Assembly (NCBI RefSeq): GCF_024362785.1
Contig: NZ_CP093301.1
Location: 3,038,001-3,102,000, forward strand
DNA from: Evansella sp. LMS18
GTDB taxonomy: Bacteria > Bacillota > Bacilli > Bacillales > Salisediminibacteriaceae
Length of the DNA stretch: 64,000 bases
Reading direction: 5' to 3'
Shown here: positions 468 to 30,941 of the stretch, one piece after another
Position numbering within the stretch: position 1 is the first letter of the stretch
Layout: the number at the start of each line of letters is the position of its first letter
Notes under the pieces: generated by a model
What the model was told of the DNA's origin: nothing
Databases searched by the model: none
The model's input: the letters and a program-made list of their open reading frames with translations, nothing else
Made by a program: the position numbers and the translations under genes

Positions 468-1285
468 GTATCAAATCAGCTGGGGAAATAACTGATCAGA
501 CATATAAAAAAGTGCTGGCTGAATTGCTTTATCAGCTGGGGGACGATGATTTTGTACTGTCTTTCAGGGGCTCCGAGTGGCTGGGGCTCTGCCCGCATAT
601 TGAAGAAGATGTAGCTTATTCTTCTATTACCCAAAATACAATGGGGCACGCCACTATGTATTATAAACTCCTTGAGGAACTTGGCGAAGGCACGGCAGAC
701 GAACTTGCCCACGCCAGGCCAAAAGAGGAGAGAAAGAATGCAGTCATCCTGGAAGAAAAAAACGGCGAAGGCGGATATATGGATGAACCGCGGTATGACT
801 GGGCTTTCACCGTAGTCAGAAATTACCTTTATGAGGCTGCGAAAAAAGTCAGGCTCGATTCATTAAAGCAATCATCCTACAGCCCGCTTGCTAATGTTGC
901 AAAGAGTATAAGCAGAGAGCAATATTTCCATCTCAAGCACTGGGAAGTATGGTTTACTCAGCTTCTGTCGAGTACACCAGAAGCTGCTGAAAGAATGAAT
1001 ATCCAGGTTGAAAGGGTATGGCAGGACTTCGGAGATGTCTTATCACTTGGGCCATCAGGGGAAAAAATGACAGAATTCAAGCTGATTGGGGACGAGAAAA
1101 CGTTAGCCGAACAATGGACTAAACAGGTTGAGGCTTCATTTGAAAAAGCAGGGGCAAAAATACCGGAGGGAGCTACCGGGTCAGTATCAGGGAACGGAAG
1201 AGAAGGATTTCATACCGATGATCTTACTCAGGCCCTTGACACTCTTGGAGAAGTTTATAATCTTGACCGTGCTGCCACCTGGTAA
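464..1285 (+). CDS. paaC: Phenylacetyl-CoA epoxidase subunit PaaC
   Basis: A 273-residue ferritin-like protein of the PaaC family, the structural subunit that pairs with PaaA and supports substrate binding but lacks the di-iron site. Family segments include ELLYQLGDDDFVLSFRGSEW near residue 20 and DDVAYSSITQNTMGHA-like sequence near 50 (here EEDVAYSSITQNTMGHA). The late segment EGFHTDDLTQALDTLGEV is typical of the C-terminus. It overlaps paaB by four bases, so the two are co-translated. Length is normal for the family. Confidence 0.93.
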   Translation: MSIKSAGEITDQTYKKVLAELLYQLGDDDFVLSFRGSEWLGLCPHIEEDVAYSSITQNTMGHATMYYKLLEELGEGTADELAHARPKEERKNAVILEEKNGEGGYMDEPRYDWAFTVVRNYLYEAAKKVRLDSLKQSSYSPLANVAKSISREQYFHLKHWEVWFTQLLSSTPEAAERMNIQVERVWQDFGDVLSLGPSGEKMTEFKLIGDEKTLAEQWTKQVEASFEKAGAKIPEGATGSVSGNGREGFHTDDLTQALDTLGEVYNLDRAATW

Positions 1286-19417: not shown

Positions 19418-19558
19418 ATATCGTCGCGGGGTGGAGCAACGAGCAGCACATCATCGAATAATCTTCGAGTTGTCTCGACGCATTCACATCGAAGCGATAC
19501 TGTCAGAGGAAGAGACAGTCAAAAAGGCTTCCTGAAACAAGCATCATCCGAAACTTTC
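19418..19558 (+). repeat. tRNA-associated element D1 with truncated tRNA-fMet 5' copy
   Basis: Bases 19418-19438 duplicate exactly the 21 bases at 19559-19579: seven upstream bases plus the first 14 of tRNA-fMet. The 120 bases between (19439-19558) are not tRNA. They begin ACGAGCA and carry CGAGTTGTCTCGACG at 19466-19480 and CAGAGGAAGAGACA at 19504-19517. TGTCTC of the first core can pair with GAGACA of the second around a small hairpin (ATCG-AAG-CGAT). An element with the same two cores and spacing is at tRNA-Gly (30538-30692). No reading frame of note. Confidence 0.8.
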
Positions 19559-19565
19559 ATATCGT

Positions 19566-19642
<77 letters not shown>

Positions 19643-19649
19643 AACCGTA

Positions 19650-19725
19650 AACTTCTTCGAATAAACTCCATTGTAGGTTTTGCGACGAGTAACCGCAGGA
19701 GCAAATAACCTGATGGAGAGAAGTT
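19650..19725 (+). repeat. Structured repeat E, copy E1
   Basis: Nested inverted repeat after tRNA-fMet: AACTTC/GAAGTT outside, then ACTCCAT/ATGGAG, AGGTT/AACCT and TTTGC/GCAAA. The apical part TTGCGACGAGTAACCGCAGG (from 19680) recurs with one change at 32863 upstream of yhbB. Predicted to fold as a long hairpin in the tRNA precursor. Confidence 0.65.
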
Positions 19726-19742
19726 AATTATATGTTTCACCT

Positions 19743-24206: not shown

Positions 24207-24293
24207 CTTGTCAGTCTGTAATTTTTAAATAATTTGATTTATTGTGTTACATAGAATTATACTTATAACTGGAAACTAATTTAATAACAATTC

Positions 24294-24374
24294 GGCTAGG
24301 GGAGCATGGAAATGCTGAGAGATGGAATATCGACCCTTTGAACCTGATCTGGGTAACACCAGCGTAGGGAAGTG
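24294..24374 (+). promoter_or_regulatory. TPP riboswitch (THI element)
   Basis: The conserved core is clear: CTAGGGGAGC at the 5' side, GCTGAGA, then CCCTTTGAACCTGATCTGGG and AACACCAGCGTAGGGAA. These match the thiamine-pyrophosphate aptamer. It precedes a transcription terminator and tenA, so binding of TPP should shut off the gene. Confidence 0.95.
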
Positions 24375-24411
24375 GAATCGCATAATTATGGCCATTTTAT
24401 GGTCAATGCTG

Positions 24412-30375: not shown

Positions 30376-30400
30376 ATGTGTATGAATAATACAGGGACTG

Positions 30401-30432
30401 AAGGGGTCTGGCGCTGATTGTCCAGACCCCTT
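30401..30432 (+). terminator. Strong hairpin before the tRNA-Gly promoter
   Basis: AAGGGGTCTGG / CCAGACCCCTT, 11-bp stem, 10-base loop. There is no T run after it. Confidence 0.5.
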
Positions 30433-30473
30433 AGTACCGCAAGCAGATCTTGAGGTCTTCTTTCCTGCTTCAT

Positions 30474-30502
30474 TTGACAATCGGGCTTTCACCTTGTAAA
30501 AT
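30474..30502 (+). promoter_or_regulatory. tRNA-Gly promoter
   Basis: TTGACA (30474-30479), 17-base spacer, TAAAAT (30497-30502). It points to the truncated tRNA copy at 30546; the full tRNA starts 155 bases further on. Confidence 0.8.
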
Positions 30503-30537
30503 AAATACCATAAATCAACTGCCATGCGGCTGTTTAG

Positions 30538-30692
30538 AAAATCATGCGGGTGTAGTTTAGTGGTAAAACCTCAGCCACGAGCAAAGCATCCATGCAACAG
30601 CAGCGAGTTGTCTCGACGTATGCGCTTCAGAGCATAAGCTTGCAGAGGAAGAGACATGTCCGGTCGTGGAAAGCAGCCGAAGTCTCCACAAA
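30538..30692 (+). repeat. tRNA-associated element D2 with truncated tRNA-Gly 5' copy
   Basis: Bases 30538-30576 duplicate exactly 30693-30731: eight upstream bases plus the first 31 of tRNA-Gly. The 116 bases between begin ACGAGCA and carry CGAGTTGTCTCGACG (30604-30618) and CAGAGGAAGAGACA (30643-30656), the same cores as D1, 27 bases from the element start and 39 bases apart (38 in D1). The segment between cores differs but again forms a hairpin (TATGC/GCATA). TGTCTC pairs with GAGACA across it. Confidence 0.8.
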
Positions 30693-30700
30693 AAAATCAT

Positions 30701-30774
30701 GCGGGTGTAGTTTAGTGGTAAAACCTCAGCCTTCCAAGCTGATGTCGTGGGTTCGATTCCCATCACCCGCTCCA
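30701..30774 (+). tRNA. tRNA-Gly (TCC)
   Basis: Acceptor GCGGGTG/CACCCGC, anticodon TCC, encoded CCA. A single-gene unit separated from its promoter by the D2 element. Confidence 0.97.
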
Positions 30775-30798
30775 TTTTAATTAAATACCATACAGATA

Positions 30799-30838
30799 AT
30801 AAAAGTAGTGGTCCTGCAGGGAGTCGCTGCTTTTTTAA
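30799..30838 (+). terminator. Putative tRNA-Gly terminator
   Basis: Imperfect stem AAGTAGTGGTCC / GGGAGTCGCTGCTT followed by TTTTT, 25 bases after the tRNA. Confidence 0.5.
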
Positions 30839-30941
30839 TGTTTATATACGGTGATAAAATATAATACGACAGGGATCAGGTGTTAGACCTTATAGTAAAT
30901 GCTCGTATTGAATGGCAGTAAAAAGAAAGAAGGTGATTCCA

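What the first reader, a model, noticed from the sequence alone, without database searches (positions are those of the whole stretch)
30538..30774. Same element at a single tRNA-Gly, now separating the gene from its promoter
A 39-bp exact copy of the tRNA-Gly 5' end (30538-30576 = 30693-30731) and a 116-bp insert lie between a good promoter (30474-30502) and the full tRNA. The promoter is at the normal distance from the truncated copy, which indicates the original gene started there. The precursor would hold a half tRNA that could mis-attract RNase P.
Basis: partly seen in the sequence, partly recalled or inferred. Interest (0 to 1): 0.68.

Follow-up and report, generated by a model that had tools for sequence, protein, structure and literature searches.

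The report
Small mobile element invading tRNA genes
A folded, 80-letter DNA element sits inside a broken copy of the start of a glycine tRNA gene, with an intact gene just behind it; related copies sit the same way at many other tRNA genes in about half of the related bacteria that were sampled, and how it moves is not known.

Summary
In detail: 30538-30576 repeats exactly at 30693-30731 with 116 bp between, and the only promoter-like site lies upstream of the truncated copy. It is not a local oddity. An 80-nt element E (30577-30656) has at least 95 model matches in this Evansella-like genome and occurs in 56 of 120 sampled genomes of the order. At tRNA genes it sits sense-oriented at a fixed point of a broken 5' copy X (31 nt in Gly, 14 in most Met, 17 in Ala, Val, Asn and half of Lys), followed by 1-5 nt of the tRNA's continuation, a tail resembling the leader, and the intact tRNA. 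A sister species has the empty tRNA-Met site: leader-X-Y, where the window has X-[E-tail-X]-Y. Units occur 0-5 times in tandem. Four base pairs of E covary; its two ends pair with adjacent bases of one internal strand. In a thinly supported tree copies group by host lineage more than by tRNA, so E has spread among tRNA genes. I read it as a small mobile element, mobiliser unknown, whose insertion leaves the tRNA whole. No Rfam family matches and my paper searches found no description. A regulatory role is not excluded. RNase P poisoning is untested.

The parts
30474..30502 (+). promoter-like site, TTGACA-17-TAAAAT
   Evidence: only plus-strand site in 30380-30900
30522..30537 (+). 16-nt segment absent from sister genome G003; resembles a collapsed earlier copy of the tRNA-Gly start (inference)
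   Evidence: comparison of leaders printed
30538..30545 (+). leader copy 1 (8 nt, repeated at 30693-30700)
30546..30576 (+). X1: truncated copy of the first 31 nt of tRNA-Gly(TCC)
30577..30656 (+). element E (80 nt): P1 30577-30582 with 30603-30608 (tandem G.A inside), P2 30609-30614 with 30651-30656
   Evidence: alignment and covariation
30657..30692 (+). tail between E and the leader copy
30693..30700 (+). leader copy 2
30701..30774 (+). intact tRNA-Gly(TCC); X2 = 30701-30731
19425..19438 (+). X1 of the tRNA-Met site (14 nt; with 7 nt of leader 19418-19424)
19439..19517 (+). second copy of E (79 nt)
19518..19565 (+). tail and leader copy before the intact tRNA-Met
19566..19642 (+). intact tRNA-Met(CAT), initiator type by its sequence (recalled)

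Best explanation
E is a small, non-coding, structured mobile element. SHOWN by comparison: a core of about 80 nt with fixed ends sits at a fixed point of a 5' tRNA copy, sense-oriented; behind it come a few nt of the tRNA's continuation, a tail resembling the tRNA leader, and an intact tRNA whose 5' part repeats the interrupted one; sister species differ by the presence of one whole unit; unit number varies from 0 to 5; two pairs of P1/P2 covary among the window genome's copies and four across lineages. INFERRED: E inserts in the tRNA 5' region behind an AG-containing motif; the event or its repair duplicates leader + 5' tRNA, so the tRNA behind it stays whole and the insertion is nearly harmless; the tRNA is still made from the old promoter as a longer precursor cut by RNase P; units multiply and vanish by recombination between the repeated X segments and pass between paralogous tRNA genes by gene conversion. 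The mobiliser is unknown. Because the first base of E pairs with the last base of the P1 3' strand and the last base of E with the very next base, an internal strand holds both ends together, which would suit excision as a circle or recognition as folded single-stranded DNA or RNA.
For: At least 95 matches in this genome, 29 of 40 relatives, own genome included, 56 of 120 order genomes. 94 of 107 copies found before an intact same-strand tRNA have the partial copy, 69 of 94 exact. All 105 partial 5' tRNA copies (11 nt or more, within 330 bp) found before 754 tRNA contexts carry an insert (80 by pattern, 25 by my reading of the printed flanks), none is bare. Empty site in the sister species. 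A further element (E1) lies inside an already broken Lys copy in L010 and L036 without target duplication, while L042 and L122 lack it at the same place. The tree follows host family (27 changes for 20 states) more than tRNA (37 changes for 10 states); a clade of 23 copies (95/80), all from G280 and G035, spans Lys, Thr, Gly, Phe, Met and Asn. Covariation. Same strand as the nearest tRNA in 116, opposite in 1, no tRNA within 400 bp in 60 of 177 copies.
Against: No mobilising protein found; 10 RAYT-like loci carry no E nearby. Gain versus loss in the sister comparison is not settled: G002 has E at the tRNA-Met of a cluster with the same gene order, so G003 may have lost a unit. No active movement was seen. 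MFE folding does not find P1/P2 (z from -1.03 to 0.23), and of the five measures two do not exceed shuffles. Tree support is thin (81 columns, 20 of 90 inner branches starred, bootstrap not settled). The duplicated leader varies from none to 24 nt (my reading) and in L122 is absent. X is kept closer to the tRNA than the leader is, which a neutral relic would not need.
Confidence: 0.7

Rival explanations
1. E is a host-useful RNA element in tRNA precursors: X-E in the leader controls transcription, processing or stability of the downstream tRNA, and is kept by selection.
For: Covarying helices kept over many lineages; X stays 97.7% identical to the tRNA (45 mismatches in 1954 nt) while the leader match falls from 0.85 to about 0.45; almost strict sense orientation.
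Against: Patchy: 5 of 14 queG-linked tRNA-Gly loci are empty in the stretch read and 64 of 120 order genomes have no match at E 0.001 (stricter filters); 49 copies of G000 in the set have no same-strand tRNA within 320 bp downstream; copies at different tRNAs of one lineage group together; no promoter- or terminator-like site in it.
Confidence: 0.15
2. No dedicated mobility: E arose once, spreads only by homologous recombination and gene conversion between tRNA 5' ends, plus tandem slippage.
For: Near-identical tandem units (5 in G006); in L122 the unit sits 4 nt behind tRNA-Thr without a copy of that leader, as gene conversion would leave it; X repeats suit unequal exchange.
Against: Copies at non-tRNA places with the same E ends; E1 inserted inside a broken copy without duplication; transfer between different tRNA species needs a new X each time.
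Confidence: 0.1
3. A decayed tandem pair of full tRNA genes, the first one broken by chance.
For: The first 1-5 nt behind E match the tRNA continuation (0.83, 0.63, 0.45, 0.45, 0.43; shifted controls 0.20-0.32).
Against: The rest of the tail scores against its own tRNA 3' part as against other tRNAs (11.3 against 10.9, sd 2.35, n = 68); the same core sits at tRNAs of many kinds; the sister empty site has one tRNA.
Confidence: 0.05

Closest known systems
Small dispersed repeats (SDR) of filamentous cyanobacteria (Elhai et al. 2008; paper not held; features recalled; cited in PMC3116915, passage seen)
   Same: Very small, non-coding, folded repeats; insertion without target duplication is recalled for SDRs and seen here for E1
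   Different: SDRs are recalled as 21-27 nt; E is about 80 nt, favours tRNA genes and is tied to a duplicated tRNA 5' part
REP/REPIN elements with RAYT transposases (PMC3116915, passages seen)
   Same: Small structured repeats; some intergenic copies here form inverted pairs
   Different: None of 10 RAYT-like loci looked at has a credible E (one match at 10.6 bits, E 0.67); G035 has 16 matches of E and no Y1 transposase match
MITEs such as bcr1 of the Bacillus cereus group (recalled; paper not held)
   Same: Short non-coding repeat in tens of copies
   Different: No inverted repeat at the ends of the insert; the duplication (39 and 21 bp in the window) includes a gene part
Group I introns in bacterial tRNA genes (PMC3984707, passages seen)
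   Same: Insert in tRNA genes, also near the anticodon
   Different: No Rfam match of E; the tRNA does not run on across E but is repeated behind it; a likely group I intron sits in tRNA-Arg of the same genome
Genomic islands integrated at tRNA genes (recalled)
   Same: A copy of part of the tRNA restores the gene
   Different: Islands restore the 3' part and carry an integrase (recalled); here the 5' part is restored and the 116-bp insert is far too short for one
Bhal-1 family of B. halodurans, 74 bp, 36 copies (PMC2267715, passages seen)
   Same: Similar size, folded repeat, same group of bacteria
   Different: Its sequence is not in the passages seen; my model finds 7 copies in one H. halodurans genome, so identity is open

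Membership tests
Small dispersed repeats (SDR) | size of about 21-27 nt (recalled) | tested here: not met
   E is 74-83 nt in the 94 tRNA-linked copies with X
Small dispersed repeats (SDR) | precise insertion without target duplication (recalled) | tested here: inconclusive
   true for E1 in L010/L036 against L042/L122; units at intact tRNAs come with a duplicated X
MITE | terminal inverted repeats | tested here: not met
   one search lists no inverted pair at the ends of the insert
REP/RAYT | repeat flanks a Y1 RAYT gene | tested here: not met
   10 RAYT-like loci from 6 genomes: no credible match
REP/RAYT | carrier genomes encode a Y1 transposase | tested here: not met
   G014, G017, G035 and G038 have E and no PF01797 match; all 14 genomes with 36 or more E matches do have long Y1 proteins
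Group I intron | match to the group I model | tested here: not met
   no RF00028 match at the Gly site up to E 10 or in 13 loci with copies up to E 1
Group I intron | both exons flank the insert | tested here: not met
   only 1-5 nt of 3' continuation behind E
Group I intron | self-splicing | not testable with these tools
   needs RNA work
tRNA-integrated island | integrase gene and restored 3' end (recalled) | tested here: not met
   the insert is 116 bp; the 5' part is repeated
Known Rfam family | match above gathering score | tested here: not met
   Searches (window, gathering; E-value mode) list no family above its gathering score at a copy of E

The most novel reading that the evidence does not exclude
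A new class of mobile element for which tRNA genes are the home: a folded core of about 80 nt whose internal strand splints its own two ends, inserted at fixed points of tRNA genes by an unknown enzyme acting on single-stranded DNA or RNA, and made tolerable because each insertion regenerates the 5' part of the tRNA. In high-copy genomes the core has escaped into intergenic repeats.
Probability: 0.3. Interest if true: 0.85.

Novelty: new variant of a known kind. Interest (0 to 1): 0.72.

Why it matters
tRNA genes are among the most constrained sequences in a genome, yet here small elements seem to enter them repeatedly in one order of bacteria and leave them working. If movement is confirmed, it adds a route by which mobile DNA tolerates essential targets (repeat the 5' part instead of splicing or restoring the 3' end), gives a natural assay of tandem-unit gain and loss, and warns that tRNA leaders in these bacteria can hold unannotated inserts of up to several hundred bp. 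The covarying ends make a concrete, testable prediction about the excised form.

Tried and rejected
Rfam: no family for E. MFE folding of single copies, RNA and DNA, gave z between -1.03 and 0.23 and not P1/P2; P1/P2 rest on covariation only. RNAalifold found P2 but not P1. RAYT as mobiliser: all 14 genomes with 36 or more matches have long Y1 matches and so do 10 of the other 25 (my reading of its list), but the 10 loci looked at carry no E. Phages: no match; viral contigs: no exact pattern match. Plasmids: 45 records, 20 listed; 18 of the 20 cover 40% of the query in two pieces, as the tRNA start alone would; two Anoxybacillus amylolyticus plasmids cover 95% at 72-73%. An empty site for the main intergenic copy type was not found in the own genome. 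Decayed 3' half of the tRNA as origin of the tail: rejected. Wobble argument for DNA rather than RNA: U.G is about 5 of 424 weighted cells at the four covarying pairs, close to C.A at about 3; suggestive, not used as proof. Literature: searches listed no paper that I recognised as describing this arrangement; most subscription papers are not held.

Bias to know: copies were found by a script that asks for at least 5 of 6 P2 pairs (wobble allowed), so P2 percentages there and are conditional; A1 was picked by conserved letters without asking for pairing, and one of 50 rows was dropped as spurious before it was built. The 94 of 107 count uses a score cut-off for the partial copy. In one search only 150 of 2104 candidates were scored, and only 110 per genome, so high counts are lower bounds. 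In low-copy genomes not every match was fetched, and stretches of G280, G035, G205, G226 and G244 were picked around matches in tRNA clusters. The last line was cut at wrong coordinates and not used.

Full report
1. The observation. The 39-nt repeat, the 116-bp insert, the intact tRNA-Gly(TCC) and the promoter are all as described. The repeat is 8 nt of leader plus tRNA nt 1-31. The tRNA-Met site in the window has the same make-up with a 21-nt repeat and a related insert.

2. A repeat family. The unit has 54 blastn matches in this genome, 5 of them only the tRNA start. An alignment of 49 copies gave a covariance model with 95 matches here (a lower bound: 150 of 2104 candidates scored), and matches in 29 of 40 relatives, own genome included, and in 56 of 120 genomes and 37 of 74 genera of the order (stricter filters). 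In a class-wide draw it hits 7 of 249 genomes, all seven in the same order (stricter filters). The eight other same-genus genomes have 48 to 110 matches, with 110 candidates scored per genome; most genomes outside the genus have few or none. In the loci fetched from lower-copy genomes, 76 of 78 copies lie within 400 bp of a tRNA on the same strand and 2 have none there. The nearest relative, G003, has a contig of the same length as Evansella clarkii DSM 8720, so the host is, by inference, an Evansella-like bacterium. I searched 18 of the 80 listed loci with the model: all 11 from Bacillus-like genera have E (among them Geobacillus thermocatenulatus, Shouchella clausii, Halalkalibacterium halodurans and A. 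pseudofirmus OF4); of 7 from unrelated groups, 6 have none and one MAG contig labelled Bacteroidia has it, possibly mis-binned. Halobacillus, Cytobacillus and others rest on the pattern alone.

3. Anatomy. E starts ACGAGC and ends GAGACA or a covarying variant, 74-83 nt in the 94 tRNA-linked copies with X. Left of it stands X, the start of the tRNA behind it: 31 nt in all 21 Gly cases, 14 in 16 of 20 Met cases, 17 in all Ala, Val and Asn cases and 9 of 18 Lys cases, several lengths in the rest of Lys, Phe and Thr. 69 of 94 X copies are exact; 45 mismatches in 1954 nt. Right of E, 1-5 nt match the tRNA's next bases (0.83, 0.63, 0.45, 0.45, 0.43, then 0.20-0.36; shifted controls 0.20-0.32). The tail does not resemble the rest of the tRNA (11.3 against 10.9) but does resemble the leader upstream of X (34.2 against 14.4; n = 68 last units). 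That likeness may come from target duplication or from eroded earlier units; I cannot separate the two. From the start of E to the end of the second X the last units measure 120-177 bp.

4. No bare partial copies. Before 754 distinct tRNA contexts in the loci at hand, 105 partial 5' copies of at least 11 exact nt were found within 330 bp; 80 have E by pattern and the other 25, read by eye, carry divergent or decayed E or another core (CGATCGA type), so none is bare. Duplication and insert go together.

5. Dynamics. At the tRNA-Gly beside queG, 14 loci could be read: 9 occupied (L144 judged from the end of its contig, L154 without X) and 5 empty in the stretch read; occupied ones carry 1 or 2 full units, some with remnants, and L150 a third E without X. 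The sister genome G003 has two units where the window has one plus a 16-nt segment that looks like a collapsed X. At tRNA-Met, G003 has leader-X-Y where the window has X-[E-tail-X]-Y, a 141-bp difference with clean ends. G002 has E at the tRNA-Met of a cluster with the same gene order, so G003 may have lost a unit by recombination between the 21-nt repeats; the same cluster of G002 has E at tRNA-Val, where the window has only a 7-bp spacer. G006 has five near-identical units in tandem before a tRNA-Met. In G000, two tRNA-Lys loci have a further element between GAGCCATTAGCT and CAGTT of the broken copy, and two Lys loci lack it with the two parts joined: a precise insertion without duplication. 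In L122 the broken Lys copy starts 4 nt behind tRNA-Thr and the tail does not copy that spacer, as gene conversion from another Lys locus would leave it.

6. Spread among tRNAs. In a tree of 94 copies (81 columns, thinly supported, bootstrap not settled), the tRNA label needs 37 changes for 10 states and the host-family label 27 for 20 states; the shuffles shown need 62-65 and 53-56. A clade of 23 copies (95/80), all from G280 and G035, covers six tRNA species. So copies moved between tRNA genes within lineages.

7. Structure. On A1 the strongest covarying column pairs are 9-40 (C-G, A-U, G-C) and 45-87 (C-G, U-A). Of five measures, three exceed all 500 shuffles and two do not (pairs with change on both sides 245/500, further types 322/500). 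On 172 distinct copies the top four pairs are three in P2 and one in P1, each 98-99% standard pairs by weight. P1 holds a tandem G.A. The first base of E pairs with the last base of the P1 3' strand and the last base of E with the next base, so one internal strand splints both ends. This geometry is read from the alignment; single-sequence folding does not find it.

8. How it most likely works. See the best explanation: shown and inferred steps are marked there. The promoter's -10 lies 43 nt before X1 and 198 nt before the intact tRNA, so the tRNA most likely comes from a longer precursor (inference; needs RNA data). The genome has at least four other tRNA-Gly(TCC) genes (L009, L010, L026, L027), so this locus is not the only source.

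9. Known systems. Membership tests fail for MITE, REP/RAYT, group I intron and tRNA island, and for SDR on size. It works most like a small structured insertion of the SDR kind, with tRNA genes as preferred sites and target repetition as a new feature. I found no description in the searched library; absence there proves little.

Noticed in passing
window 19643-19742: The 100-bp spacer between tRNA-Met and tRNA-Asp is 1 bp in the sister genome G003. It reads as a long stem-loop with the short hairpin TTGCGACGAGTAACCGCAGGAGCA (19680-19703) in its loop.
   Followed up: partly
L104, L106-L115, L117, L121: The same short hairpin is inserted once or several times in tandem inside the P2 loop of intergenic E copies: a second, smaller repeat nested in the first.
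   Followed up: partly
L013, L014, L018, L040, L119: Intergenic E copies form divergent inverted pairs 8-40 bp apart (coordinates), like REPINs.
   Followed up: partly
L095, L099, L234, L320: A different core (CGATCGA...) sits behind TAGAGCA, in L095, L099 and L234 in partial Phe, Thr and Asn copies: a second family with the same architecture.
   Followed up: partly
L002 about 940-1220 (minus strand): tRNA-Arg(TCT) of this genome has both halves around a likely group I intron (RF00028, 30.8 bits, below the gathering score), and E sits in a broken Arg copy just upstream.
   Followed up: partly
plasmids NZ_CP015439.1 and NZ_CP015440.1: Anoxybacillus amylolyticus plasmids match 95% of the unit plus tRNA-Gly start at 72-73% identity.
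   Followed up: no
L205: In G244 two elements seem to interrupt one tRNA-Phe copy at two points, with the tRNA sequence running on between them.
   Followed up: partly
window 24288-24387: TPP riboswitch, unrelated.
   Followed up: no
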